Origin: Candidatus Jordarchaeales archaeon
GTDB taxonomy: Archaea > Asgardarchaeota > Jordiarchaeia > Jordiarchaeales > Freyrarchaeaceae
Assembly: GCA_038889235.1 (NCBI GenBank)
Contig: JAWAHN010000001.1
Location: 124,001-188,000, forward strand
Direction: 5' to 3'
DNA length: 64,000 bases
Below, in pieces: positions 3,509-37,385 of the stretch. Position numbers and translations under genes: made by a program. How positions within the stretch are numbered: the first letter of the stretch is position 1; every line of letters starts with the position of its first letter. The notes beneath the pieces are model-generated. The model ran no database searches. It saw only the letters and a program-made list of their open reading frames with translations, and was not told the origin of the DNA.

Positions 3509-4630
3509 CTATTCCTCGCCGCCGGAGGACTCCACGAACCTCCTGAGCTCGCTTGGAATCGTTAACCCCTTTTCAGCATAACTTGTTAATGTGAGAGCGG
3601 CATAGTCTCGCACCAACTCGTTCTTGCTACCCAGCAGTTCTGCGAGCTTGTTTAGGGCTACCATGTCTGTTATCCCTTTCTCGGCGTAGGCTGTTAAAGC
3701 GTAGATAGCGTTGTTTCTCGCGTGTTCGTCGTCGAGTAGGTTCACCAGTTTTCCTACAACTGCTGGGTCTGTGAACCCCTTCCTAGCGTAGCTGGCTATG
3801 GCAAGCGCTGCGTATCCTCTTACTACGCTGTCATCGTCGTCTAGAAGTTCTACGAGTTTTCTTAGGGCTTCCGCTTTCACTATTCCTCTTGAAGCATAGC
3901 TTGTCAGGGCGAGCGCAGCGCAACTGCGTACTTCGACACTCTTCTTGCTGAGGAGCCCGACAAGTTTCTCAGGCACCACGGGATCCGTGATTCCTCTTTC
4001 AGCATAAGCGGCTAGAGCGAAGGCTGCGCATCCCTGGACGGATTCCTCTTCGTCGTCTAGGAGCGCCACTAGCCACCTTAAAGCGTTCACGTTGATTATG
4101 CCGCTTTCTGCGTACTTTTCAATGGCAAGCGCAGCACATTTTCGAACCCATTCGCTTCTATCAGCTAGAAGTTTTACAAGTCCCTCTAAGGCTTCAGGAC
4201 ACTTTACCCCCTTCAAAGCATAGCTGACTAGGGCGAGCGCCGTGTTCCCGCGCACTGTGGTGTCTTCATCGTCGAGTAAGTCGACCAGTTTATCGAGAGC
4301 GGCAGGGTCTGTAAATCCCTGGTCAGCGTAGTTTGCGAGGGCGAGTGGCACATTCCTGCGCACTTCAAGACTCTCATCACTCAACATATCGACCAGTTTT
4401 CTCAGGGCATTGGGCGCTACAATTCCGTTTGAAGCGTAAATGGCTACAGCGAGCGCTGCGCCACCCCTCACGCCGCCATCACTGTCACTTAAAAGTTCCA
4501 CAAGCCTGCCTAGAAGCTCGGGGACAAGTAAACCGGCTTCAGCGTACTCGACAATCATGTAGACAGCTTCCATTCGCACTTCAGCGTCAGCGCTCGACAA
4601 CTCTTCCACGATAGACTTAAAATTACACAT
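3509..4630 (-). CDS. HEAT-repeat protein 1
   Basis: About 373 residues made almost entirely of nine to ten 37-residue alpha-hairpin repeats. The consensus reads roughly L-x-x-LVxLLxD, then four or five residues, VRxxAAxALxxYAxxGI, then a short acidic or Pro-rich linker and ALxKL. The spaced VR...AA..A...YA pattern marks HEAT/armadillo-type solenoids, which act as binding scaffolds. I prefer the ATG at 4628-4630 (GGAG about 3 bp upstream) to the TTG 12 bp earlier. No catalytic domain, signal or membrane segment is visible. A second gene with the same repeat type lies at 6747-7922 on the other strand. The partner is unknown. Resemblance to phycobilin-lyase HEAT repeats is generic, and I do not infer that function. 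Confidence 0.85.
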   Translation of the reverse strand: MCNFKSIVEELSSADAEVRMEAVYMIVEYAEAGLLVPELLGRLVELLSDSDGGVRGGAALAVAIYASNGIVAPNALRKLVDMLSDESLEVRRNVPLALANYADQGFTDPAALDKLVDLLDDEDTTVRGNTALALVSYALKGVKCPEALEGLVKLLADRSEWVRKCAALAIEKYAESGIINVNALRWLVALLDDEEESVQGCAAFALAAYAERGITDPVVPEKLVGLLSKKSVEVRSCAALALTSYASRGIVKAEALRKLVELLDDDDSVVRGYAALAIASYARKGFTDPAVVGKLVNLLDDEHARNNAIYALTAYAEKGITDMVALNKLAELLGSKNELVRDYAALTLTSYAEKGLTIPSELRRFVESSGGEE

Positions 4631-4969
4631 AGTCTCCGCCAACCAGCAGGATTAGCGAACTAACATTGTTATACCCGCACCCAAATCTTAAATCTCTTTT
4701 TAACACCCGTTTAGACTGTTAGTCGGCGGGGCTTCTTACCACTCTGACTTGTCCGGGGAATTAGTTTCTCCCGCTTCGGTGGCGGTTTGATAACCTGTCA
4801 GCATGGCTATACGCATACTGCAAATTTGCCTGGGCGAAAACTCATGAGTTTGAGGGGCTAAGCGAAGGGCTGGGAAATGTTTCCAGGAATTTTTCGTCCT
4901 TTAACCCAGCGCTCACCTCACAGGTTCTTACTTAGGTAAAAACGCTTACCTCACCCCATAAAGAGCTAA

Positions 4970-6746: not shown

Positions 6747-7922
6747 TTGAGAGACCTTGACAGGCTTGTTGAAGATTTGCTTAGTAAGGATGCTGAGAAG
6801 AGGAAATGGGCCACCCTGATGCTTGCTGAAATGGCTGAGGATGGGGTGACTAGTGATAGGGCTTTGCAGAGGCTTGTAGAGCTTCTCGACGACGCAGACG
6901 AAGGTGTGCGCATGGGTGCCACTTACGCTGTGGCTAGGTATGCTGAGAGAGCGGTGATGGATGAGAATGCTTTGGAGAAACTTGTTAGGCTTTTGGGTGA
7001 CTTAAACGTTAGGCTACGCGATATGGCTGCTTACGTCCTCGGTAAGTACGCTGAGAGGGGGATTGTTAGGCCCGGCGTACTTAAAGAGCTCGTAGGTCTC
7101 TTAGAGGACGGGAGTGAAGATGTGCGTATGAGCGCCGTTTATGCTGTCGCAGCTTACGCCTTAAGGGGGCTTGTGGATGCTGAAGCGTTAAAGAGACTGG
7201 TCAGATTGCTTGGGGAGAAGGATGAAAGTGTGCGTAACATGGCGGCGTGGACGCTTGGTAGTTATGCTGAAAGGGGACTCGTTGAGCGCGATGCGCCGAG
7301 GAAGCTGGCCGAGCTACTTGAGGACAAGAACGGAGATGTGCGAGGAAGTGCTGCCTGGGCCCTTGTCAAGTACGCTGAAAAAGGACTTACATGCTCGGAC
7401 GCCGTGAAGAAGCTTGTAAAGCTGCTAGAGGATGAAGGGGTGGAGGCGCGCTTAAATGCGGCGTGGGCTCTCTCAATGTACGCTCTGAATGGCTACACAA
7501 ATCCGGACGCGCTTGGAAAGCTTGTGAAGCTGTTAAGCGATGAAAGGGAAGAAGTGCGTGACGTTGCAGCTTACACGCTGGCGCTCTATGCCGAAAGAGG
7601 GTTAACGCAGCCCGATGCTATGGAGAAACTCGCTAAACTGTTGGATGAAGAGGGGGACGAGGTGAGAAGTAGCGCTGCGTGGGCCCTTGGAGAATATGCT
7701 GGGAGGGGGTTTACGCACATGGAGGCATTAGAAAAGCTTGTCGGGCTGCTTGAAGATTGGAACGTTGAAGTGCGAAGGGGGGCTGTCTACGCGGTTGCCA
7801 GGTATGCAGAGATGGGGCTTAAACATCCTGATGCGCTTCATAAGCTTTCGAAGCTTCTTAAGGACGAGGATAGAGAAGTACGTGAGATAGCGAGCTACGC
7901 TTACAGTTATTACGAGAAGTAG
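6747..7922 (+). CDS. HEAT-repeat protein 2
   Basis: 391 residues with ten 37-38-residue HEAT-like repeats of the same consensus as the gene at 3509-4630: VRxxAAxALxxYAERG followed by xxDALxKLVxLLxDxxxE. The start is a TTG at 6747 with GGGGGA 6 bp upstream. Acidic Asp/Glu runs between helices and the repeated YAERG turn suggest an elongated, negatively charged solenoid. No other domain is present. Its similarity to the first HEAT protein points to an ancient duplication: repeats are alike in type, but most residues outside the consensus differ. The gene ends 29 bp from the convergent methyltransferase. Likely a protein-protein scaffold; the partner is unknown. Confidence 0.85.
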   Translation: MRDLDRLVEDLLSKDAEKRKWATLMLAEMAEDGVTSDRALQRLVELLDDADEGVRMGATYAVARYAERAVMDENALEKLVRLLGDLNVRLRDMAAYVLGKYAERGIVRPGVLKELVGLLEDGSEDVRMSAVYAVAAYALRGLVDAEALKRLVRLLGEKDESVRNMAAWTLGSYAERGLVERDAPRKLAELLEDKNGDVRGSAAWALVKYAEKGLTCSDAVKKLVKLLEDEGVEARLNAAWALSMYALNGYTNPDALGKLVKLLSDEREEVRDVAAYTLALYAERGLTQPDAMEKLAKLLDEEGDEVRSSAAWALGEYAGRGFTHMEALEKLVGLLEDWNVEVRRGAVYAVARYAEMGLKHPDALHKLSKLLKDEDREVREIASYAYSYYEK

Positions 7923-20864: not shown

Positions 20865-21359
20865 CTAGACGAGTTTTATTTCCGTTACACTTCCCCTTTC
20901 CGTCAGCTTTGACCACTCTATTATTGCTTCTTTTCCCGAATACTTTTGAACTATGGCGGCTGCGACCATTGCCATGGGGCATATTCCCTTTGTCTCTGCT
21001 ACGATGTGTGCTGTTTTCGCCATGAAGCAGTCATTGAGGACGAAAATGTACGTGCTCTCATCCTTTTTTCTAAACTCGGCGGATGAGACAAGTAGGGATT
21101 TCTCTAAAAGCTGGGCGAATTTCGACAGCGCTTCCTCGATATTTTCTCCCTTTATGGATTTTAGTCCGAGCTTCTCTACTCTTATCACACTCTCTTGCAC
21201 CATCGGGAATATGTAGTCTTTGAACCCTTCACGGCCCAAGAGCTCTATTATTTTTTCCTGGAGAGTGAATATTACGGCATGAAACAAGCCAGATATCGCT
21301 CCAAATTCACGGGACATCATGACGTCAACCATTTTCCTTTTTAGGCTCACTTTCACCAC
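20865..21359 (-). CDS. Hypothetical protein coupled to a longin-like protein
   Basis: 164 residues starting GTG at 21357-21359 with AAGGAAGG just upstream; the ATG at 21330-21332 is an alternative. The gene overlaps the end of the upstream longin-like gene by 35 bp, so the two are translated together. N-terminal helices (SREFGAISGLFHAVIFTLQEK), then a compact alpha/beta part ending FVLNDCFMAKTAHIVAETKG, ICPMAMVAAAIVQKYSGKE and SVTEIKLV. The last segment, with its Cys residues, Gly-Lys turn and final strand, looks like small ligand-binding V4R/ATC-type domains, but I cannot name a family. Cytoplasmic. A sensor partnered with the longin protein would be a reasonable guess, no more. Confidence 0.6.
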   Translation of the reverse strand: MVKVSLKRKMVDVMMSREFGAISGLFHAVIFTLQEKIIELLGREGFKDYIFPMVQESVIRVEKLGLKSIKGENIEEALSKFAQLLEKSLLVSSAEFRKKDESTYIFVLNDCFMAKTAHIVAETKGICPMAMVAAAIVQKYSGKEAIIEWSKLTERGSVTEIKLV

Positions 21360-22074
21360 CTTCCTTGGAAATTTTTAGCGCATAGTCCAGAAGGAAGCCG
21401 GCAACAGCGACGACGCTGCTAGCATCGTAATATTCGGTTCTCCTAGAAGTGAGCGCCATAAGGCAGAGTTTACCCCTAACAACAACTACAATCCATTTCT
21501 CCTCCCCTCTGAGAACTACTACGTCAACTTTGCCTCCTCTTAATTCCTCGGACAACTTGTTTGCAAAGTTGACAGCCATAGTGACAGTTGCTAGCTTTCT
21601 CCTAGAGCTAAACCAGTCGGGAAGAACGGAAAAAAGGAACTTTTCGCTTTCAAAGTCGTATAGCACAATACCCTCCAGCTCAGACCGCGAATAGAGGATG
21701 CGCATAACAGTCTCCATGAACGGCTTGGAAACTAGACTTTTAAGGTACGAGTTCATCTCATTGAAGACACTTAAGTCGCCATTCCAGTTTTCGAGCACAT
21801 TCCCATACTTGCTCAAGAACACATTTAAAACATCCTCAAGGATAAACTTAATTAAAGCCTCCGGTAGTTTCTCCGACAATATAGCGGCAACGCATACATC
21901 CTTTTCCTTGTCAACTACGAAGTAAACTTTCCTGTCTTTGAATTCCAGGAATTCTATTTCTGAACCTATAACGCTTCTACTGAAAGACATTATGGCAGAT
22001 ATTAGGCCTCCGACGAGCTGTTCCCCGCCACTTACAGCTGAAGCCAGGCAAATGCCGCCACCACCTATAACCAT
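21325..22074 (-). CDS. Two-domain longin/roadblock-like protein
   Basis: About 249 residues from the ATG at 22072-22074; an upstream frame to 22143 is possible but lacks a ribosome site. The first domain begins MVIGGGGICLASAVSGGEQ, then LVGGLISAIMSFSRSVIGS and EIEFLEFKDRKVYFVV, the strand-helix-strand order of the longin/roadblock fold (self-reference strand, helix with GxLSAIxxF, two strands). The second half (MRILYSRSELEGIVLYDFES; KVDVVVLRGEEKWIVVVVRG) reads as a diverged second copy. The C-terminus is charged. These domains bind small GTPases or dimerise in eukaryotes and appear in many archaeal proteins of unknown role. The same type of domain occurs in the 953-residue membrane protein at 31548-34409. 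No membrane segment here. Confidence 0.65.
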   Translation of the reverse strand: MVIGGGGICLASAVSGGEQLVGGLISAIMSFSRSVIGSEIEFLEFKDRKVYFVVDKEKDVCVAAILSEKLPEALIKFILEDVLNVFLSKYGNVLENWNGDLSVFNEMNSYLKSLVSKPFMETVMRILYSRSELEGIVLYDFESEKFLFSVLPDWFSSRRKLATVTMAVNFANKLSEELRGGKVDVVVLRGEEKWIVVVVRGKLCLMALTSRRTEYYDASSVVAVAGFLLDYALKISKEGGESEPKKENG

Positions 22075-22170
22075 TATGTTATGAATGAAGTTGCGTGTAA
22101 AATTTTCCTGAAACAAGAGGCTACACCAGCCGAACAAGGCCACTTTAGGAGGGAAATGAGGGAAAGAAAC

Positions 22171-24510: not shown

Positions 24511-27500
24511 ATGAGAGAAAAAAAGAGGATAATCTTGGCCGCGTTAATCGCAACTGTACTCATGCTCACCACTTTTGCCCCACTTATGCCTCAACACCCC
24601 ACGCTAACACTAGCCCTACCACAACAAGCCACCACAAACAAGCAGGGAAGCATACCACCACAGGACGCACCTCCATGGTGGAACACCACCTTCAAATACA
24701 GAATACCCGTCAATGTGAGCGTTAGCGCTAACGCCAGCGCCACAATTCCAGTAGACGTCTACATAAACTTCACTCAGCTCGGATATAACTGTCATAAGAA
24801 CAGCATAAGGATCCAGTTTTGGGATGGTTTGTCGTGGTTTCCTGAGCCGGGGATAACATACCAGTTGTGGAATGAGACACTTAACGGGGACTACATTCAG
24901 AGTGCGACAATAACGTTCCATGCAAATGCAACAGCATACAGCACAACAGTGTACTACATATATTTCAGTGACGTAGATACAGGTACCCCGTCATTCACTC
25001 CACAAATAGATGCTATAATTCAAGACCCGATAGTAATAGTGATAGGAAAATACTACGAGGCGTACATATACACTAACACGTACGGTGGAAAAATATTCGA
25101 GTGTTACAACGCATTCTCCGAAAGCAACTGGAGCCAAGCACCATTCCATAACAATCCAAAATTTGCTAGTGGAAAAAATGATAAATTCAAGTGGATTATT
25201 GATGGAGCACCTTTTTACGGGCCTAACGTGACCTTAGGTCCCTTATTCGTTACCGTAACAGCGTGTACAAACTACACTTATGAGGGACCAGGAAGACCAC
25301 AGACAAGTAGTAATTATGTTAATGTGACTTACAGGTTCTTTGAGTGGGGATGGATATGTGAAACAACTACGTTCTTCACAGAGTTACGTGACCTTAATTA
25401 CTATGAGTGCTGCGGTTACTCGTTTGATCCCCAAATAATGCCGAAGCTAGTTTATGAGGGAGGCGAGCCATTAACAATGAGTGTTGGTTCCGTCTACTAC
25501 CTAGGGAAGGTGAATTGGTTCTGCACACTAGATGAGGCTTTTGGCGTTGCGGCGGGCATAGTGGACATTGCAGACCTCCAGTATAACATTACAAGTCCTT
25601 CATTGCTGAGTTGGCAATTTGTGGTGAGTTACGGGAGTGACTCTGAACGCTGGTGCAGGACCACCATTAGTTTAACGGTTGATACTGGAAACTGGATACG
25701 TGAACACTACGCCTTCTATGTTTGGAATGGAAGCCAGGGTTATATTCCGTTTGTGGGCTTTGCTGAAGCTGTAAGGAAGAAGTCCATTGTTATCGGCGGT
25801 GTTGAGGAGAGGTTCTTCAGCCTGACTATTTACGCCAGAGATTTAAACAATCAGACTTTGAGCAATGCCCTAGTAGAAATAATGGACAGCGAGGGAAGAC
25901 TGCTCATAAGTGGAACGAGTAATCAAAGTGGAGCCTCATCATTTTACCTCTACGAGGGAAATTATAACATATGTGTCAGTTGGAATGAAGAACATGATGG
26001 AATAATTTATCAGACGTACACTGACACTACGCCAGTCAGCTTGGATGGGGATACATCCATAACCGTTGTGCTAGGCATAGTTAACCTCATATGCCAGGCG
26101 GTATACCCGTGGAACAGCAGCATACCGTACATTAACGTTACGGTCATGAAGGAAGGACAACTTATCACTTCAGGAATAACTAACAGTACAGGATACGTAC
26201 ACTTCCGCCTGCCACCAGGCACATACAATGTATTTCTCTACGAAGATGGCGTGCAGCGAGCAGTTAATGAGTCGGATTATGTCCAGTTAGATCTTTCAGA
26301 AAGCAATACACCATACACCGCAATTCTCAACTGCACCTACTACCTCCAAGTTCCCTCACTCACAGGGACAGTCATATCCATTGTTAACGGCACATCGCTG
26401 TCATTTACCTGGACACCGCACAAGGTTATGCTCATGGTCACATGGTATTATGAAGATGATAACGGGACTGACGTGAACCGCTCTGAGGATGAAAGTCGCT
26501 ACTTGCAGTACAGGGTTATTAACGCTTCAAGAGTGGTTTTAGACTGGACGAATCTGACGCAGCATTATAGCAACGGCGGAATATATTATTTAGCTGATCT
26601 TACTGGCCTTCTTTATGGTGGAGTGGTTTACACTGTCGAGTTTAGGGCTGGTGGCTCAGGGTTTGAGTCTGTTGCGGCAAGCGCACTCGTTCAGGTTAAT
26701 CCTGTTATACTGAGTGATTCCAACGTTAATGTTTCGCGTCTGGGAACCTACTTCTGGAACCAGGAGGATATCCCAGTTTGGGTCCGTGTCTACGACGACT
26801 ATAACGGGCTCCCAGTGGTTGGTGCCAACGTCACGTGGAGCGTTGAGGGGTTCGGCAGTTTCCGGCTAAACCACGCTGGGGACGGAAACTACACGGGAAT
26901 CATACCTAAGGACCTCTTGCCTCAGGGAAGTTACATTGTGAGCTTCAGGGTGGAGTGCGCGAACTACACCGTTTACACGAAGGACAGACCTATAGTAATC
27001 GCTCCGAGGCCGATAAGCTTGGAGTTTAAGCCTACGTACGACGTCGTCTTTGGAGACAGCGTCATGTTTTACGTTTACTGTAAGGATAATCTTACGGGTG
27101 AGCCGTTGAGATCTGTGGCAAGCGTCTTCTACTCTATCGAAGGAACAATGTTCTCTGGCGTTCTTACAGACGAGGACGGGGATGGTAACTACACTGGCAC
27201 ATTTGATACTTCGCTTCTCCCCTCGGGTGTAAGCTACGGCATCACGGTTACCGTCAAATTAGAGAACTACGTTTCAGTAGAGAAGACAATATACTTGTTT
27301 GTTAAGCCTGTTCCAATGGTAATCCAGGATGTTCAGATTTCTAGGACGCACTGGAGGGACACGCTTAACTTGACTGTTACTGTTTGGGACGTGCATAATA
27401 GTGTGCCAGTTGTGGATGCGAGCGTCAGTTGCACCGTTACTAGGGATGGGGTTGTAGTGTTCGAGGCTCCGCTCGAAAGCCTGGGTAACGGAACTTACAT

Positions 27501-28812
27501 GCTTAGCGTCGATACGATAGGCATGCCTCCGGGCGAGTACACCGCGGTGTTCAGCGCCTCCAAGGAGGACTACTCTGCTCAGAATATGACGGTGAAGTTC
27601 AGCATACTGCATATTCCAATGGAAATTCAGAATGTTAATGTTACAGAGGCGCGCTGGAGGGAAAAGCTCAACTTGACGGTTACGGTTTGGGACACTCACA
27701 ATGGTGTCCCGGTTGAGGATGCGGTGGTCAGCTGTGTTATAATGAGGGATGGCGTGGTTGTGCGCGAGGTTCAGCTTGAGAGCTCGGGTGACGGAACCTA
27801 CAGGATTAGCATCGACACGACCAGCATGTCTGCGGGCAGATACACTGCTGTTCTCAAAGCATCCAAGGAAAACTACCTTGCCCAGCCTATGCAGGTGGAG
27901 TTCAGCATACTGCCTGCTTCAGCTACAGTTGCTCCGGTGGGCAACGTCGTCCTCGGAGGAGGCGCACCATACATGGTCCTGCTTGGAGGTTATGGTGAGG
28001 TTGAGAATGGTGTTCCCTTTGTTGTTCTTGTTTTTGAGTACAGGGATGCTTATGGTAACCCTGTTCCTGGAGCCACAGTCACAGCCAACGGCTTACCACT
28101 AACACACATCGGAGACGGACGGTACATGATGGTTGTTCCCACAGGCATGCCTTTCACCATGCCCATTGTGGTTTCGGCTTCGGCGGAGAACTATGAGTCG
28201 TCTCAGACATTTCAAGTGTTAACGGTCAGGGAGAGGAGCGTTGTTATACCTGGGCTTAATTTAAGGGTGCCGTTGACGATGTTCTTGGTGGCTTCGCTCG
28301 CGGTTGTTGCTCCGCCCGCCAGTATCGCGGGGTATGTTTATGTGAAGAGGGCGCGGACGCCACCTATAATAAGGCGCATAGACAAGTTGATTGAGGCTAT
28401 ACAGAAGGGTGCTAGGATTGAGGTTGGAAAGCCGCTGACGAGAGACGATGTGATCCTGTCCCTCCTCTGGGAGGAGATGGCGGTTGTCGGCGTTGAGCCC
28501 AGGATCGCTGTGATGCCTGTTGAAGTCGTGGACAAGCTGGTTCCGCTACTGGTCGAAAGCGGGCTAACCAAGGACGAAGCTGTCACTACTCTGAAGGAGC
28601 TTAGAGCTACCGCACCGGCTGAGAGAGAGCGGTTACTTGCATCTCTAGGAGTCCCACCCGACGTGAGCGCGGTGATACTTGGTGAGCTGGAGAAGCAGGA
28701 GGAAAAAGAGGGCGCAAAGAAGACAGCGAAGGGAAAGAAAAAAGCAGAAACGGAGGAAGGAGCAGGCGAGGGGCTCGAGGGGGACATTGAAGAGAAAATA
28801 GATGAGGAGTAG
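24511..28812 (+). CDS. Giant surface protein: DUF2341 domain, Ig-like repeats, TM anchor, helical tail
   Basis: 1433 residues. Signal helix at about 7-35; from residue 53 a DUF2341-type lectin-like domain (PWWNTTFKYRIPVNVS; YSTTVYYIYFSD). Two carboxypeptidase-regulatory-like beta domains follow at about 435 and 524 (TSNQSGASSFYLYEGNYN; TNSTGYVHFRLPPGTYNVFL). About five Ig-like repeats follow from 732 (LPVVGANVTWSV; LTGEPLRSVASVFYSI; SVPVVDASVSCTV; GVPVEDAVVSCVI; GNPVPGATVTANG), the third and fourth closely alike. One TM helix lies near 1253-1277, followed by a 150-residue intracellular tail rich in helices and ending in a Lys/Glu coil. Many N-glycosylation sites. The tail argues for signalling or attachment to a cytoplasmic partner rather than simple surface display. 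ATG at 24511 with AGAGGG about ten bases upstream. Confidence 0.85.
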   Translation: MREKKRIILAALIATVLMLTTFAPLMPQHPTLTLALPQQATTNKQGSIPPQDAPPWWNTTFKYRIPVNVSVSANASATIPVDVYINFTQLGYNCHKNSIRIQFWDGLSWFPEPGITYQLWNETLNGDYIQSATITFHANATAYSTTVYYIYFSDVDTGTPSFTPQIDAIIQDPIVIVIGKYYEAYIYTNTYGGKIFECYNAFSESNWSQAPFHNNPKFASGKNDKFKWIIDGAPFYGPNVTLGPLFVTVTACTNYTYEGPGRPQTSSNYVNVTYRFFEWGWICETTTFFTELRDLNYYECCGYSFDPQIMPKLVYEGGEPLTMSVGSVYYLGKVNWFCTLDEAFGVAAGIVDIADLQYNITSPSLLSWQFVVSYGSDSERWCRTTISLTVDTGNWIREHYAFYVWNGSQGYIPFVGFAEAVRKKSIVIGGVEERFFSLTIYARDLNNQTLSNALVEIMDSEGRLLISGTSNQSGASSFYLYEGNYNICVSWNEEHDGIIYQTYTDTTPVSLDGDTSITVVLGIVNLICQAVYPWNSSIPYINVTVMKEGQLITSGITNSTGYVHFRLPPGTYNVFLYEDGVQRAVNESDYVQLDLSESNTPYTAILNCTYYLQVPSLTGTVISIVNGTSLSFTWTPHKVMLMVTWYYEDDNGTDVNRSEDESRYLQYRVINASRVVLDWTNLTQHYSNGGIYYLADLTGLLYGGVVYTVEFRAGGSGFESVAASALVQVNPVILSDSNVNVSRLGTYFWNQEDIPVWVRVYDDYNGLPVVGANVTWSVEGFGSFRLNHAGDGNYTGIIPKDLLPQGSYIVSFRVECANYTVYTKDRPIVIAPRPISLEFKPTYDVVFGDSVMFYVYCKDNLTGEPLRSVASVFYSIEGTMFSGVLTDEDGDGNYTGTFDTSLLPSGVSYGITVTVKLENYVSVEKTIYLFVKPVPMVIQDVQISRTHWRDTLNLTVTVWDVHNSVPVVDASVSCTVTRDGVVVFEAPLESLGNGTYMLSVDTIGMPPGEYTAVFSASKEDYSAQNMTVKFSILHIPMEIQNVNVTEARWREKLNLTVTVWDTHNGVPVEDAVVSCVIMRDGVVVREVQLESSGDGTYRISIDTTSMSAGRYTAVLKASKENYLAQPMQVEFSILPASATVAPVGNVVLGGGAPYMVLLGGYGEVENGVPFVVLVFEYRDAYGNPVPGATVTANGLPLTHIGDGRYMMVVPTGMPFTMPIVVSASAENYESSQTFQVLTVRERSVVIPGLNLRVPLTMFLVASLAVVAPPASIAGYVYVKRARTPPIIRRIDKLIEAIQKGARIEVGKPLTRDDVILSLLWEEMAVVGVEPRIAVMPVEVVDKLVPLLVESGLTKDEAVTTLKELRATAPAERERLLASLGVPPDVSAVILGELEKQEEKEGAKKTAKGKKKAETEEGAGEGLEGDIEEKIDEE

Positions 28813-30647: not shown

Positions 30648-31475
30648 CTAGTGGTGGCTCCACCCTTTCTCCCTGGTGAACATTCTAGAGAACATTTTGT
30701 AGCAGATGGCTGGGAGCTCCACCCTTCCGTAGTTTTCTGCCGTTATGAACCGTATAACGTGGTTTATGAGGAAGGTTGCCAGTAGCTCGAGCTGGTAGCT
30801 TCCAACACTGGACAGGTTTCTGCCAGAGTAGGATACGTCAAGCACCTCTCCGTTATAGAGTGCTTCGACGAAAACTTGCGGGAAAAACTCCCTTTTCACT
30901 CTCCACTCGGAGCCACTCTTCAGCACCTCTGCACCCGTAAACCTTCCAAGCTTCTCAGAGTCCTCCGCCTTCAGCAGCCTGAAGGGCTCCCTTCTCTCCT
31001 CCAGTATTTTGACCATAAGACTAGACTTTCCACCGTAACCCTTGTCCACTGATTCTCGCCCAGTTAGCTTCGCCGCCAGGAGGTTTAAGGCGATACTTGT
31101 GAACGTAACCAAGTCCTCTCCGGGAACCCAGTAGGCTCTCTCGCCTGAGAACAGGAACTTCAGCTCGCCCTCAACGTCGCCGAACTCGTCCCCGTAGTAG
31201 AAGTAAAGCACGTGGACGTTGACCTCTGGAAAGAACTCGAGCGTGAAAGCCCAGTCCTCTCCCAGCCCAAGACTCTCAAATCTGCCGCCCAAAGCCTCGC
31301 AAACCACGCCGCGAACCCTCTCCAGCCCAAAATCCTTGAAGAGTGGAAACATCGCCGCACTAAACTCTTCGAGCTCCCTCTGGTGGGGGCTCCCGACAAC
31401 CCCGTCGATCTGCCCTACAACCAGAAACCTCGGCTTCACCAAACCCACCCTTTTCCACCCGGTCAAGTTGGACAT
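30648..31475 (-). CDS. Hypothetical protein with two similar halves (DUF3786-like)
   Basis: About 275 residues from the ATG at 31473-31475 (MSNLTGWKRVGLVKPRF). Two related stretches can be aligned: FTLEFFPEVNVHVLYFYYGDE near residue 105 and VKREFFPQVFVEALYNGEV near 215, each followed by a charged turn and a hydrophobic helix (TFTSIALNLLAAKL; SYQLELLATFLINHVIRF). This FFPxVxVxxLY pattern is similar to DUF3786-type proteins. No catalytic motif. The Lys/Gly-rich KGYGGKSSLMVKIL between the halves is not a full Walker A. Cytoplasmic. Gene lies between the ATPase and the longin-like membrane protein, all on the minus strand, with 70-220-bp gaps. Confidence 0.6.
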   Translation of the reverse strand: MSNLTGWKRVGLVKPRFLVVGQIDGVVGSPHQRELEEFSAAMFPLFKDFGLERVRGVVCEALGGRFESLGLGEDWAFTLEFFPEVNVHVLYFYYGDEFGDVEGELKFLFSGERAYWVPGEDLVTFTSIALNLLAAKLTGRESVDKGYGGKSSLMVKILEERREPFRLLKAEDSEKLGRFTGAEVLKSGSEWRVKREFFPQVFVEALYNGEVLDVSYSGRNLSSVGSYQLELLATFLINHVIRFITAENYGRVELPAICYKMFSRMFTREKGWSHH

Positions 31476-31547
31476 TAAAAGACGCGAGAATTTAAACTCT
31501 TTCCCAAAAAGCGAAAACAATACGAGCACAAAAATAGAGTGTGAAGA

Positions 31548-34409
31548 CTATGCTCCGCCAGTCTCTATCTTGCCCAGCTCATCTATGAGCCTTTTAAGCT
31601 CCTTTTCAAGAGCGCGCAGCTTTTTCCTCTCTTTGTCGGTGAGTTCACCCCTCTCCTCCTTCACCCTGAACTCCTCGATCTTGGACCTTATCTCGTTAAA
31701 CCTCGCCCTAACCTCCTCAATCTTACCCGTTATTATCAGCTCTCTCACCCGTATCCTCGAGAGCGTGTCATCTATACTCGCAATCCTCTGCTCAAGCGTC
31801 TCCTTCTCACGGCTCAACTCAGAGATACGCCTCTCATACTCCTCAACACTCAAAACCCTCTTATCGAGAAGCTCGCCAGCCTTCTTAGCCTCCTTCTCCA
31901 GGGAAGCGATAGCAGTCATCAAACGACTCTTCTCTTTAATCAACCCTCTCATCCTTGCCTCGTGAAGCTTGAGAAGCCTAGGATAGTTGAAAACGCTGTT
32001 AAAAGCACGCCTGAAAACATCCCTGAACTCTGAGACGTCACCACCCTCCCACTTTCTGAGGGCTGAGCCAGCCTCAGCCTCCACAAGCCTCAGAAACTCG
32101 GCGAGTCTACCTCTAAGCCACTCAACCTCAAGCTTGCCAACCTTTCCAGCGACGCAGACGACCTCCAAGAGCTCGCTTTCAGCCCTCACAAACGTTCCAA
32201 TGCGCGTCTCAAGCACGTTGAACCCTCCAAGCCTCATCTCCTCAGCAAAGCTCCTCACCGCAGACACGAAGCCCGACACAAGCGTAGCATCAACATCCAG
32301 CGAGAGAACGTCAAAGCTCCACAACGGAAGACCCGTCTCCCTATGCGTAACCAACACGTTCTCGATAGAAGAGAGAGCCTTAACAGGAGCCCGCCACCTC
32401 CTGTAAACCCTACCACCAGCAACACCACCAGCAACCACAACGGCAGCCGAAACACCCAGAAGAGCAAGAAGGCGTGAAAACTGAACGGACTGAGCAGATT
32501 GGGCCATGAAAGCCAAAACCTCAGCAACCACCTCTAGAGGCAACGGCGGCGGACTATAAGAAAGTTCAACAATCCTATATGTCTCCTCTATGTGACTCCC
32601 CCACACAACCATCTTAAACTTGTAGAAGCCCCCGCCAGGCAGAGTAAACTCCACAAAGTAAGACCCATTCCTATAGTTATCTATCTTATCCAGCCCAACT
32701 TCGCCTCCATCAACATAGAAGAGTCTTACTTCGGCATTTGTAACAGGGAAGCCAGTGTCGTTCCTCGAAACGTAAAACAGTATCCTTACACGGTCCGTGC
32801 TCTCAAGCCTATCTATCCTAATAGAGCATGGAGCCCTATCCGAAATACTGAAGGAGGACTGCTCGATCAAGCCAACCTCTAAGCCACACTCCACGAGAAG
32901 ACGCACCACATAGCTCCCAGGCTCGACGCTCACGTTAAACCAGCCAACATCAACTGTGCCGCCGCTGAAAACCGTCTGGTTTTCAAAGACTTTACCTCCA
33001 TCTTTGAGGACCGTTAAATTCGCTTTCCCGCTCAGTGTAGCAGTTAGCGCGCCCCTCACGGTCAAGTTGTCACCGACAACCGCACCACTAACATTGACCG
33101 GGCTGAAGCCCTCATACAGAGAGTAAATCGTTAAGAAGGAAAGAACGTTCGGCCCTCTACACTGTATTATCCACGTGCCATTCGCGGCCTCAAAAAGCAA
33201 CATCCCAGGGGCGTTAACCAGATAGACCCTTTCTTCCCCCGTATCACTATTCAGAGCGCCCGGAGTAATGTTCCACCAGTCAGCCGGTATCGACACGTTG
33301 ATGAACATACCTGAACCAATGTCAGGGAAACCGTGATCTTCTGTGGCGTCAATGGTAACATTCCATTTTACTTCGCTAATCGCAACTGCATAAGTAGTAG
33401 TGGCATTTATTTTTCTGTAAAACACAGAATTGGCCTTAGAAACGTTGAAATAGACAATGTCATTCCAACTTGAAGACGCATCGAAATGCACTATCCCATC
33501 TTGAGACTCAAATGGACCATTAATAGTACAATTTCCAACTCCTCTCTTCCCAGGAAAATCAAGGACACTAGCACCCTCAATTTTCAACCCAACTTCACTA
33601 GGGTACGCAGGACCATAACTAAGAAAAACGTTCATTAGAAAGTCTCCTGGTATACTTAGGCCTACCTCAAAAGATCCATCTGTTAAATTTATGCGTCCAG
33701 CGTAAGCTTCACCGTCGTTATATGGCTCTTCATCGTCAACATAAAACCATTCAGCCCATATTCCATTGCTCTCAAGAACTACGAAAAAAGTATTATTTAC
33801 TGTATTAGAAGCGTTCAGCATTGCATTGTTAAGAGAAAGGTTCAACCATCCCCTCTTAAACGTAGCATTACTATAAGAGATTTTGTTTGTTACATTTTTA
33901 TCAGGAACTAGACGATTCAATGTAGTATTCATTGTAGCATTCATAATATATACAAGCAAAGCTCCACTATATTGTACCTGAAGATAACAAGATACATTAT
34001 ATACTATGGTATTAATAGTTGATACAGGGAAAGACATAGCGAGTGTTGTGTAAGTAAATGGAATATTCGTAAAAAGAGTTACTCCCAATGTTCCCTTTCT
34101 GTCACCTTGCTTTATTGTTGCGTTTGGTGCTGTTATGTTTGTTATTGTTAGTGTTGTGTTTAGTATTCCCCAACCTTGCGGGCATGATATGTTGAAGCCG
34201 CTTTCGGTGTCTGCCTGACCTGGTGATGTGATATTTCCCGTTATTATTAGTGTGGCGTTAGTGTCTGCTCCCTGCCCTGTTATTGGGGTGTTTTTTGTTG
34301 CGGGTGTTGTTGTCATTGATATGGGTGTGATTATGTTTTGGTTTTGGATTATTATGGGGGTTAGGAGGATTAGGGTTAGTATTATTATTGATATTGTTTT
34401 TAGTTTCAC
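31548..34409 (-). CDS. Receptor-like membrane protein: ectodomain, TM helix, longin-like domain, coiled coil
   Basis: 953 residues; GTG at 34407-34409 with AGGAGGAGGG two bases upstream. Signal helix 1-32. The ectodomain (33-635) is beta-rich with many N-glycosylation sites (TLTITNITAPNATIK; FINVSIPADWWNIT) and ends in two Ig-like segments. One TM helix at about 640-665 (LLALLGVSAAVVVAGGVAGG) is followed by RRW. The cytoplasmic region has a longin/roadblock-like domain at about 675-790 (IENVLVTHRETGLPLWSFDV, then TLVSGFVSAVRSFAEEM) and a long coiled coil (815-945). The extracellular ligand side linked to a GTPase-platform-like fold suggests signalling across the membrane. A decayed paralog lies directly upstream. 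Confidence 0.8.
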   Translation of the reverse strand: MKLKTISIIILTLILLTPIIIQNQNIITPISMTTTPATKNTPITGQGADTNATLIITGNITSPGQADTESGFNISCPQGWGILNTTLTITNITAPNATIKQGDRKGTLGVTLFTNIPFTYTTLAMSFPVSTINTIVYNVSCYLQVQYSGALLVYIMNATMNTTLNRLVPDKNVTNKISYSNATFKRGWLNLSLNNAMLNASNTVNNTFFVVLESNGIWAEWFYVDDEEPYNDGEAYAGRINLTDGSFEVGLSIPGDFLMNVFLSYGPAYPSEVGLKIEGASVLDFPGKRGVGNCTINGPFESQDGIVHFDASSSWNDIVYFNVSKANSVFYRKINATTTYAVAISEVKWNVTIDATEDHGFPDIGSGMFINVSIPADWWNITPGALNSDTGEERVYLVNAPGMLLFEAANGTWIIQCRGPNVLSFLTIYSLYEGFSPVNVSGAVVGDNLTVRGALTATLSGKANLTVLKDGGKVFENQTVFSGGTVDVGWFNVSVEPGSYVVRLLVECGLEVGLIEQSSFSISDRAPCSIRIDRLESTDRVRILFYVSRNDTGFPVTNAEVRLFYVDGGEVGLDKIDNYRNGSYFVEFTLPGGGFYKFKMVVWGSHIEETYRIVELSYSPPPLPLEVVAEVLAFMAQSAQSVQFSRLLALLGVSAAVVVAGGVAGGRVYRRWRAPVKALSSIENVLVTHRETGLPLWSFDVLSLDVDATLVSGFVSAVRSFAEEMRLGGFNVLETRIGTFVRAESELLEVVCVAGKVGKLEVEWLRGRLAEFLRLVEAEAGSALRKWEGGDVSEFRDVFRRAFNSVFNYPRLLKLHEARMRGLIKEKSRLMTAIASLEKEAKKAGELLDKRVLSVEEYERRISELSREKETLEQRIASIDDTLSRIRVRELIITGKIEEVRARFNEIRSKIEEFRVKEERGELTDKERKKLRALEKELKRLIDELGKIETGGA

Positions 34410-37183
34410 AAGCCCTCCTCCTTTGAAGATTTCGCAATGATAATTTGTACAAAATATTCTCTTTCTCTTCTCTTATAAATAGTTAATTAGTTCTTTCTTT
34501 TTCTGGCTTTTGGTTAGTGTGTTTAGTTTTGTTTGTTACTGCGTGGTTGTCGTTTGTTTTTGTCGTTAGGTTGTGTGGTTGTTTGTTTTGGGTGGGTTTC
34601 GTTTTTGAACTTACTTTTTTGTTATTTTGGTGGTGTTTGTTTTCTTTTTGTTAGTTTAGCTTGTTTAAGTTCGTCTAGTTCTTTTTTGAGGGTTTTTAGC
34701 TCTTTTCTTGTTTTTTGGAGTTCTTCTCTTGTTTTTGCGTCGCTTATTATGGTGAGTTCTCTTATTTTTGTTCTTGTGAGTGTGCTGTCGATTATTGCTA
34801 GTCTTTGTTGGATGAGTTCTTTTTCGTGGCTCAGTTCTGGTGTTTCTTTGATTGCTTTTAGTGTTCTGAGTAAGTGTTCTTTTTCTTTTATAAGTTTTAG
34901 GATTTTTGTTTGTTGGATTCTGGTTATTTTTTGGGGGTCGAAGAGGGTGTTGAAGGAGTGGTCGAGGATTTCCCTGAATTCTTCTGTGTCTCCTCCTTTC
35001 CATTTTCCGAGTGCTGGTCCAGCTTCGGCTTCCACGAGCCTTACGAGTTCTCTGAACCTTCTTTTGACCCACTCGACCTCAAGTCTGCCAGCTGCTCCTG
35101 TGATGCACAGTGCTTCTATGAGTTCGCCTTCAACTCTGATGAATTTTCCGATCCCGGGTTTCTAGGGTGTTGAATCCTCCGATCTTCGTTTCTTCAGCGA
35201 AGCTTCTTACGGCTGAGATGAATCCTGAGACGAGTGCTTCGTCTATTTCTAGGGAGAGGACGTCGAAGCTCCAGAGTGGAAGACTGGTTTCCTTGTGGAA
35301 GATTAGTATGTTTTCTATGGAGCTTAATGCTCTGGTGGGTACCCTCAGCCTCTTGTAGGCTCTTCTGCCGCTGATTCCGCCGGCTATCGCAGCGATTAAT
35401 GCGGCTCCCAGGATGGAGAACATGCGTGAGCTTTGCATGAATTGCAGGAGCTGTAGTGTGACGAGCATGAGTTCCAGTAAGTGGTCAGGAATCGGTGAGG
35501 GAGTATACTCGTAATAATAGACGCTCACCGTTTTTTTGCGTGGTGGCTATGCGGTTCCCCGACAAGGTTATGGTGAAGTTATATGGCCCTTCGCTGGGCG
35601 GCTTGAAGGCTATGAGGGTAGGTTCCGTTCTCGTAGTCGGTTACAGCTGCCTCGATCCGGCTTCCGTTAACGTAGAACACGTTCACGCTGGCGCCTGCAA
35701 CTGGGAACCCGTATCGCTCCTTGAAACGTATATCTTAATCTTCACGACGCTTACGCTCTCAACGTGAACCAAACTTACGAAACAGGATGCTTGAGCTGAG
35801 ACGCTGAAGTTCTTCTCTAGAAGCCCGACTTCTAGGCCACAGTAAACTAGCAGGCGGAGCACGTAGTTTCCGGGGTCTGCCACGCTCCATTCGAACGCGA
35901 CGTTGCCTCCGCTGAAGCCTGCCTGGTTTGTGAAGACGACACCTCCCGACTCGTTAAGTACTGTTAGGTTTGCCGTGCCAGTTAGCGCGGAGCTAAGCGT
36001 GCCGTTTATGGTTAAGTTGTCCCTGACGACAGCTCCGCCCACCTCCACCGGGCTCCAACCTTTGTAGAGCGCGTAAACTTTGAGCTGGAAGAGGACGTTT
36101 GCCCCCCACACTGGATAACCCATGTGCCGTTTGTGGCCTCGAACAGCAACATTCCAGAATCGTTACGCAGGTATGGCGAGTTGGATATAATGTTGCCGTT
36201 GATGACGTTGAGCGCTTCACCCGTCAGGTTCCACCAGTCTGCGGGAATTGAGACATTGATAAACTTACCTGCTCCAGCCTCTGGGAACCCCTGGTCTCCC
36301 GTGGTTTCAACCGTAACGTTCCAATACGCAGACTGGTCGGGCATTACGGAGTAGACTGTTGCTGCGTTCACTTGCTTGTAGAATGTTGAGTCCGCCTGAG
36401 TAACGTTGAAGTATACTGTGCTCGTGTAGTTCGTTGAAGCATTAAAGTGCACGTACCCGTCCTGCGATGGAGGCAAACGAGCTGTTATCATACACTTACC
36501 ATTTCCCCGCTGTCCTGGGACATCTTCAACAGTGAAGAAAGCCACGCCATCTAACCCAACTTTTAAGTCAACCTCACTCGGATAAACAAGCCCCGGTTCG
36601 ACCACGACGCGCATCTTGAAATCTACAGGCATATAATTCCATGGTTTAGACGGAGACTTAATGTAGGCGTATCCGTCATTGTTGGAGTCGTCTTCCACGT
36701 ATACCAGTAGGCAACCTTATCCACGCTTCCTTTAACTAGGACGAAGAACGTCTTATCATAAGTGTTGCTGGAGTTTAGAATGACCGAGGAAAAAGAGAAG
36801 TTTAGCCATCCTTCACTACCGGGAACTGGCAAATTGGCTTGAGCTAATACCGCCGATCCGGGTTCCGGAAATCCCGATGACTCATTAAACGATGCATTCG
36901 CAACGTAAAGAGTAATCATCTTTGCAACACTAAGAGTAATAGAACTAGAAGGATTTATGTATATTGAGATTCGGTTGAGGTTCACTGTGTCTGTTGGAAT
37001 TCTGAAGGACATTGCTAATAAGGTGTTGACACTAATCTCTTGGGAGCTTGTGTTCCCAGGTCTTTCTCTTGTCTTTATTGTTGCGTTTGGTGCTGTTATG
37101 TTTGTTATTGTTAGTGTTGTGTTTAGTATTCCCCAACCTTGCGGGCATGATATGTTGAAGCCGCTTTCGGTGTCTGCCTGACC
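34110..37183. repeat. 111-bp identical tract shared by the intact gene and its pseudogene
   Basis: 34110-34220 and 37073-37183 are base-for-base identical by eye (CTTTATTGTTGCG at one end, GTCTGCCTGACC at the other). Both encode the same part of the N-terminal ectodomain, beginning with QADTESGFNISCPQGWG. Outside this block the two copies differ widely, so the tract suggests gene conversion or a recent recombination. Confidence 0.9.
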
Positions 37184-37385
37184 GGGGCTTGTACTATTAC
37201 CGGTTATTATTAGCGTGGCATTAATGTCTGCTTCCTGACCCATTATGGTTGCAGTGTTTTTAGTGGAAAGTGTTGTTGCCGTGTGAAAAGTTGTTGGGTT
37301 TGGTGTGAAGATGGTTTAATGAAAAGAGGGTTAGTGCCAGAGTTAGTGTTAGCGTTAAGATAAGAGATTTTTATGTCTTTTTCAT
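34622..37385 (-). pseudogene. Decayed paralog of the 953-residue longin-like membrane protein
   Basis: Parallel to the neighbouring gene over its full length but broken. Reading from the presumptive start ATG (37383-37385): an in-frame TAA at codon 5, then frame changes near 37280, 36700, 36108 (six C run), 35705 (GGG), 35630 (CCC), 35535 (run of seven T) and 35150 (GGG). The pieces still align: GQADTESGFNISCPQGWG; INVSIPADWWNLTGEALNV; IENILIFHKETSLPLWSFDV; LVRLVEAEAGPALGKWKGG; and a coiled-coil end with KEELKKELDEL-like residues. The longin-like and TM parts are recognisable. Most lesions are 1-base length changes in short homopolymers, which could also come from assembly errors; intact long genes on both sides argue for true decay. 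TATA-like CTTATAAAA lies near 37457. Confidence 0.85.

What the first reader, a model, noticed from the sequence alone, without database searches (positions are those of the whole stretch)
31548..34409. Receptor-like architecture: glycosylated ectodomain, one TM helix, longin-like domain, coiled coil
The large beta-rich outside part is joined to a cytoplasmic domain with the longin/roadblock strand-helix signature (LVSGFVSAVRSFAEEM) and a 130-residue coil. A membrane-spanning protein with a GTPase-platform-like domain is unusual and suggests transmembrane signalling or membrane-trafficking-like functions in archaea.
Basis: partly seen in the sequence, partly recalled or inferred. Interest (0 to 1): 0.62.

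Follow-up and report, generated by a model that had tools for sequence, protein, structure and literature searches.

The report
Asgard surface receptors with longin domains
An Asgard archaeon encodes a glycosylated cell-surface protein whose inner end carries a longin domain, the fold that eukaryotes use to control small GTPases in membrane traffic, and proteins built this way turn out to be common across Asgard archaea, which suggests (but does not prove) that they pass outside signals to the cell's GTPases.

Summary
Window 31548-34409 (-) encodes a 953-aa protein: signal peptide, ~610-residue all-beta ectodomain with 28 N-glycosylation sequons (none inside), one TM helix, a cytoplasmic domain and C-terminal helices. 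AlphaFold2 of residues 668-815 (pLDDT 83.5, pTM 0.81) gives longin strand order; nearly all top PDB fold matches are longin/roadblock proteins (zeta-COP, AP sigma, Mon1-Ccz1, Fuzzy-Inturned, Sec22b). The organism is an Asgard archaeon (Jordarchaeia/Freyarchaeia). Related longins fused to Arf-like GTPases exist in the same genome; one passes Pfam's Fuz_longin_1 cut-off. The arrangement is no one-off: sister-family genomes carry up to six paralogues with varied or no ectodomain, and other Asgard families carry giant versions (1,100-3,000 aa). A linker-longin-winged-helix module occurs in 157 of 228 Asgard genomes, though not every hit was checked for a TM. The longin tree rejects a single origin of TM-bearing forms. 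No small GTPase lies near the window gene, so the 'neighbouring GTPases' check fails. Best reading: a surface receptor whose longin is a membrane platform for a Ras-family GTPase encoded elsewhere. Architecture and fold are shown or predicted; GTPase binding is inferred. A tandem copy upstream is a frameshifted pseudogene.

The parts
31548..34409 (-). 953-aa receptor-like protein: signal peptide, ectodomain, TM, longin, C-terminal helices
   Evidence: ORF; start and Shine-Dalgarno; orthologues
34338..34409 (-). signal peptide (residues ~1-24)
   Evidence: hydrophobic segment 3-22
32490..34322 (-). all-beta ectodomain (residues 30-640), 28 N-glycosylation sequons
32412..32474 (-). single transmembrane helix (residues ~646-666), followed by RVYRRWR
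31992..32366 (-). longin domain (residues 682-806)
   Evidence: AlphaFold2 model; Foldseek; sequence link to Pfam Fuz_longin_1 through relatives
32235..32282 (-). LVSGFVSAVRSFAEEM, first helix of the longin domain (residues 710-725)
31563..31985 (-). C-terminal helical / coiled-coil region (residues 809-949), four predicted helices
34622..37243 (-). tandem copy of the same gene, broken by several frameshifts and stops: pseudogene
30648..31529 (-). co-directional downstream gene, 293 aa, weakly DUF3786-like, kept next to the receptor in three relatives

Best explanation
A single-pass cell-surface receptor. The glycosylated beta-sandwich ectodomain binds something outside the cell. The TM helix runs directly into a longin domain that sits against the inner membrane face as a docking and regulatory platform (GEF-, GAP- or recruiter-like) for a Ras-family small GTPase encoded elsewhere in the genome. 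The C-terminal helices pair receptors (homodimers, or heterodimers with ectodomain-less paralogues in the sister family), because known longin platforms work as dimers, and/or hold effectors. Shown or strongly predicted: topology, longin fold, conservation pattern, the wider family, longin-GTPase fusions in the same genome. Inferred: dimerisation, GTPase binding, ligand sensing.
For: Longin fold predicted with good confidence and matched almost only by longin/roadblock proteins, including RabGEF subunits and coat subunits. The receptor-only longin profile finds L127 in the same genome at E 5.5e-9; L127 is a longin (Fuz_longin_1, 32.4 bits, cut-off 26.1) fused to an Arf-type GTPase (76.9 bits). 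A second fusion in the genome is L135, and L120 is one in another Asgard family. In the nearest full-length orthologue the longin is 87% identical, the helices 66%, the ectodomain 56%; far paralogues keep 37-44% in the longin and about 16-30% elsewhere. Forms lacking the ectodomain keep TM, longin and helices. The genome has 13 Ras-family hits; three of the GTPases carry the switch-I Y-K/R motif that tri-longin RabGEFs need in their substrates (PMC12383261).
Against: No GTPase gene is near the receptor, although PMC10933270 reports that in a cultured Asgard archaeon GTPase genes generally are not in operons with longins either. Some longins (SNAREs) do not regulate GTPases. No direct Pfam or PDB sequence hit for this longin itself. 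No complex could be modelled here. Ligand unknown.
Confidence: 0.52

Rival explanations
1. A surface adhesion or envelope protein whose longin is a structural adaptor: it ties the outer coat to cytoskeleton, ESCRT or coat-like machinery (sorting or anchoring), without regulating a GTPase.
For: Ectodomain fold matches include S-layer proteins and macroglobulin/Ig tandem domains. Asgard surfaces show abundant disordered surface proteins rather than an ordered S-layer (PMC9834061). Longins serve as adaptor subunits in AP/COPI, among the top fold matches. Asgard multidomain proteins with longin plus Vps28-C and adaptin appendage are described (PMC10936438). A giant relative has a weak MIT/TPR-like match in its tail (L085, below cut-off).
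Against: No ESCRT or cytoskeletal domain found in this protein. Longin relatives in the same genome are fused to GTPases.
Confidence: 0.27
2. The longin is only a dimerisation module for ligand-induced receptor pairing, and signal output goes through the C-terminal helices and perhaps the co-directional DUF3786-like protein.
For: Helical tail; neighbour kept 3' of the receptor in G001, G002 and G003; a soluble longin protein in the same window could be a partner.
Against: The longin, not the helices, is the most conserved part, suggesting a conserved interaction beyond pairing.
Confidence: 0.13
3. A SNARE-like membrane-fusion or tethering protein (longin plus coiled coil plus TM).
For: Longin, helical coil and TM are the three parts of VAMP7/Sec22; Sec22b and VAMP7 longins are among the fold matches.
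Against: Order is TM-longin-coil, not longin-coil-TM, so the coil does not zipper toward the membrane; a 610-residue ectodomain has no SNARE counterpart; the coil is poorly conserved (16-29% in far paralogues).
Confidence: 0.04

Closest known systems
[quoted passage not shown]
   Same: Longin fold. Relatives L127 and L120 score above Pfam's Fuz_longin_1 cut-off, so the sequence link runs to this group.
   Different: One longin instead of three; membrane-spanning with an ectodomain; no demonstrated GEF activity or partner.
Asgard longin proteins and longin-GTPase fusions (PMC10933270)
   Same: Same fold and phylum; longin-Arf-like fusions occur in this genome.
   Different: No transmembrane forms turned up in a text search of that paper (no hit for 'transmembrane').
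Asgard multidomain longin proteins with Vps28-C, adaptin appendage, Ig-like, PCI/winged helix (PMC10936438)
   Same: Longin in large multidomain Asgard proteins; the giant relatives have a winged-helix-like segment after the longin (by eye).
   Different: The passages read describe no ectodomain-TM-longin order; the window protein has a helical tail instead.
Longin R-SNAREs (VAMP7, Sec22b, Ykt6)
   Same: Longin fold and a coiled coil at a membrane.
   Different: Reversed order: here the TM comes before the longin; large ectodomain.
Signal recognition particle receptor (SRX longin of SR-alpha with GTPase SR-beta)
   Same: A longin at a membrane bound to an Arf-like GTPase (own knowledge); SRX is among the fold matches, and L127's GTPase also matches SRPRB.
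   Different: In SR the GTPase subunit carries the TM; here the longin protein does, with a surface ectodomain.

Membership tests
Longin domain | Order b1-b2-a1-b3-b4-b5-a2-a3 with five-stranded sheet | tested here: met
   Model: E15-22 E28-33 H46-61 E65-67 E72-77 E81-87 H92-119 H126-139, plus an extra N-terminal helix continuous with the TM.
Longin domain | Closest solved structures are longins | tested here: met
   Nearly all of the top 50 Foldseek hits are longin/roadblock proteins, prob ~1.0, best E 1.2e-3, Sec22b TM 0.59/0.64. E-values themselves are modest.
Longin domain | Sequence match to a curated longin family | tested here: inconclusive
   No direct Pfam hit for the window domain; indirect: the receptor-only profile hits L127 (E 5.5e-9) and L120 (E 4e-12), both above the Fuz_longin_1 cut-off.
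Roadblock/LC7 domain | Match to Robl_LC7 | tested here: not met
   13 roadblock hits in the genome, none at this gene; two C-terminal helices as in longins.
Longin R-SNARE | Longin, then SNARE motif, then C-terminal TM | tested here: not met
   TM at 646-666 precedes the longin at 682-806; helices are C-terminal.
Tri-longin-domain RabGEF | Three longin domains per subunit | tested here: not met
   One longin followed by helices.
Tri-longin-domain RabGEF | Heterodimer with nucleotide-exchange activity on a Rab | not testable with these tools
   No complex prediction or assay available.
Type I single-pass receptor | Signal peptide, glycosylated ectodomain outside, one TM, cytoplasmic domain | tested here: met
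   Sequence-level only: sequons 28 outside vs 0 inside, Fisher p 3e-5; positive charges after the TM. Glycosylation itself, ligand and signalling not tested.

The most novel reading that the evidence does not exclude
Asgard archaea have a phylum-wide class of transmembrane receptors whose cytoplasmic longin directly controls Ras/Rab/Arf-like GTPases at the cell surface, i.e. ligand-gated GTPase regulators that predate endomembranes, built more than once by joining ectodomain-TM stalks to cytosolic longins.
Probability: 0.3. Interest if true: 0.88.

Novelty: new variant of a known kind. Interest (0 to 1): 0.64.

Why it matters
Asgard genomes are rich in Ras-family GTPases, longins and roadblocks, yet cultured Asgard cells show almost no internal membranes, so what these proteins do is an open question. 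A large set of surface proteins with a longin on the inside gives a concrete, testable answer: GTPase regulation at the plasma membrane under control of outside cues or cell-cell contact. It would also suggest how longin GTPase platforms came to mark membranes before organelles existed.

Tried and rejected
Direct sequence searches of the longin against Pfam, NCBIfam and PDB gave nothing; membership rests on the model and on intermediates. Neighbouring-GTPase idea: among roughly twenty Jordarchaeia receptor loci, by reading the coordinate tables, only G007:C22 has a Ras-family gene within 10 kb (and a Rag/Gtr-like gene, L048:7621-8751); giant receptor L087 has a Ras-family gene ~0.9 kb upstream: no general linkage. 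A resemblance by eye between the tail of the other window surface protein (24511-28812) and the giant receptors' tail module failed the HMM test. A V4R/TRAPPC3-like reading of 20865-21359 got no Pfam support. All TM-longin proteins as one clade: rejected, AU p 0.0013, at least 8 changes, with the caveats of a short, long-branched domain and of architecture labels set by hand. G160/SQRJ_179 'Sigynarchaeota' copies are probably Jordarchaeia contigs binned wrongly.

Full report
WHAT IS THERE. The ORF 31548-34409 (-) encodes 953 aa and has a Shine-Dalgarno sequence and TATA-like box. It has a signal peptide, no other hydrophobic segment until a TM at ~646-666, 28 strict sequons before the TM and none after it, and basic residues after the TM. 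The full-length model (mean pLDDT 68.6) shows an all-beta ectodomain 43-618, then TM, longin and four C-terminal helices 809-949. Ectodomain fold matches are S-layer proteins, complement C3 macroglobulin domains and Ig-type receptors, with low TM-scores; I read this only as tandem beta-sandwiches. No Pfam family matches the ectodomain.

THE CYTOPLASMIC DOMAIN IS A LONGIN. Residues 668-815 were modelled with 16 relatives: pLDDT 83.5, pTM 0.81, order b1-b2-a1-b3-b4-b5-a2-a3 preceded by a helix continuous with the TM. Foldseek against PDB: the best hits are zeta-COP, Fuzzy/Inturned, AP sigma, Mon1-Ccz1, Sec22b, VAMP7, SRX, and roadblocks; the main unrelated hits among the top 50 are phytochrome PAS-GAF entries with low probability. 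E-values are modest (best 1.2e-3), but the agreement is near total. Sequence support is indirect: the profile made only of Jordarchaeia receptors finds L127 in the same genome (E 5.5e-9) and L120 (E 4e-12), both of which pass Pfam's cut-off for Fuz_longin_1, the first longin of FUZ, MON1 and HPS1. The window domain itself has no Pfam hit.

WHOSE GENOME. Close relatives are all in Jordarchaeia/Freyarchaeia metagenome-assembled genomes, Asgard archaea; PMC11291895 says the two names cover the same group. Two copies in a 'Sigynarchaeota' bin from the same project are probably mis-binned.

FAMILY. The genus has one full-length receptor per genome where seen. The sister family has up to six, with ectodomains of roughly 370, 650 or 820 residues, and 334-341-aa forms with no ectodomain but with two hydrophobic segments, longin and helices. 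The longin is the constant part: 87% identical to the nearest full-length orthologue against 56% for the ectodomain. Across the phylum the longin profile hits 195 of 228 genomes at E<=1e-6. Of 20 loci chosen for large ORFs, most hold long NxS/T-rich ectodomains, a TM about 45 residues before the longin, and an 80-500-aa cytoplasmic tail; proteins reach ~3,000 aa. Further loci gave both this arrangement and cytosolic longin proteins, e.g. DEAD-helicase, PCI and prenyltransferase-toroid fusions. A profile of linker, longin and the following winged-helix-like segment from giant receptors finds 157 of 228 genomes at E<=1e-20, 35 of 45 of the best-quality ones. That profile also catches proteins not checked for a TM, so 157 is an upper figure for carriers of that type; the TM was seen in the smaller sampled set, from ten family codes (f1, f2, f7, f13, f15, f17, f18, f19, f20, f28). 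The window's own genus has no match to that giant-type module.

ONE ORIGIN OR SEVERAL. In a 51-row longin tree the Jordarchaeia receptors form a 100/100 clade on a long branch and the giant receptors a separate 99/97 clade. Holding all TM-bearing forms together is rejected (AU p 0.0013) and at least 8 state changes are needed. With 139 columns, several long branches and hand-set labels, I take this as evidence for repeated joining or loss, not as a count.

GTPASE LINK. The genome has 13 Ras-family hits, 13 roadblock hits and about a dozen longin genes. Two of the longin genes, L127 and L135, are longin-Arf GTPase fusions. None of the GTPases is near the receptor. Three carry the Y-K/R switch-I motif reported as required in substrates of tri-longin RabGEFs (PMC12383261); this is compatible with, not proof of, such a mechanism. 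PMC10933270 notes that in a cultured Asgard archaeon GTPase genes generally do not sit in operons with longins, so lack of linkage is weak evidence against.

MECHANISM. Most likely a surface receptor whose longin is a GTPase platform, with the helical tail pairing receptors. Steps shown or predicted: topology, fold, conservation, family, fusions. Steps inferred: dimerisation, GTPase partner, ligand. Confidence in the architecture and longin fold is about 0.93; in GTPase regulation about 0.5.

COMPARED WITH WHAT IS KNOWN. Asgard longins are known and counted (PMC10933270), and Asgard multidomain longin proteins linked to ESCRT domains are described (PMC10936438). I found no description of ectodomain-TM-longin receptors in the held open-access library; most subscription papers and supplements could not be searched, so novelty is provisional. 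It is not a SNARE (order reversed), not a roadblock, and not a tri-longin RabGEF (one longin).

THE TANDEM COPY. Just upstream (34622-37243) lies a second copy that needs several frame changes and has in-frame stops, while the neighbouring long ORFs are intact: a pseudogene. It is ~37-52% identical in protein over its stretches, but 211 bp near the N-terminus are 88% identical in DNA, which suggests a recent conversion between the copies. Whether this is plain decay or a silent donor is open.

Noticed in passing
34622-37243 (-): Broken tandem copy of the receptor gene; a 211-bp stretch near the N-terminus is 88% identical to the intact copy although the rest is only ~37-52% identical in protein, suggesting gene conversion.
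   Followed up: partly
21325-22143 (-): A second longin protein in the window (272 aa; A5 profile E 1.6e-16), with weak Pfam leanings to Intu_longin_1 in its first half and to roadblock in its second half (all below cut-off); possible partner of the receptor.
   Followed up: partly
20865-21359 (-): 164-aa gene whose start overlaps the end of the longin gene; looked V4R/TRAPPC3-like by eye but no Pfam support.
   Followed up: partly
24511-28812 (+): 1433-aa second surface protein (carboxypeptidase-regulatory-like and Ig-like repeats, a TM near the C-terminus, cytoplasmic tail); parts of what look like its orthologues lie near the receptor in G001, G002 and G003.
   Followed up: partly
30648-31529 (-): DUF3786-like gene (below Pfam cut-off) kept directly downstream of the receptor in three relatives; function unknown.
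   Followed up: partly
L127:976-1878 and L135:1516-2367 (own genome); L120:1166-2074: Longin-Arf-type GTPase fusions whose longin shares the W-x-G-[ND]-xxx-F motif of the receptors.
   Followed up: yes
3509-4642 (-) and 6747-7922 (+): Two HEAT/armadillo-repeat proteins, with some adaptin-N similarity.
   Followed up: no
G000:C1:996173-996664: Ras-family GTPase match with one in-frame TAG; G002 has one with an in-frame TGA. Pseudogene or recoding not examined.
   Followed up: no
L087:1-1068 and L087:1941-11033: Ras-family GTPase gene with an N-terminal extension ~0.9 kb upstream of a 3031-aa receptor in the same direction.
   Followed up: no
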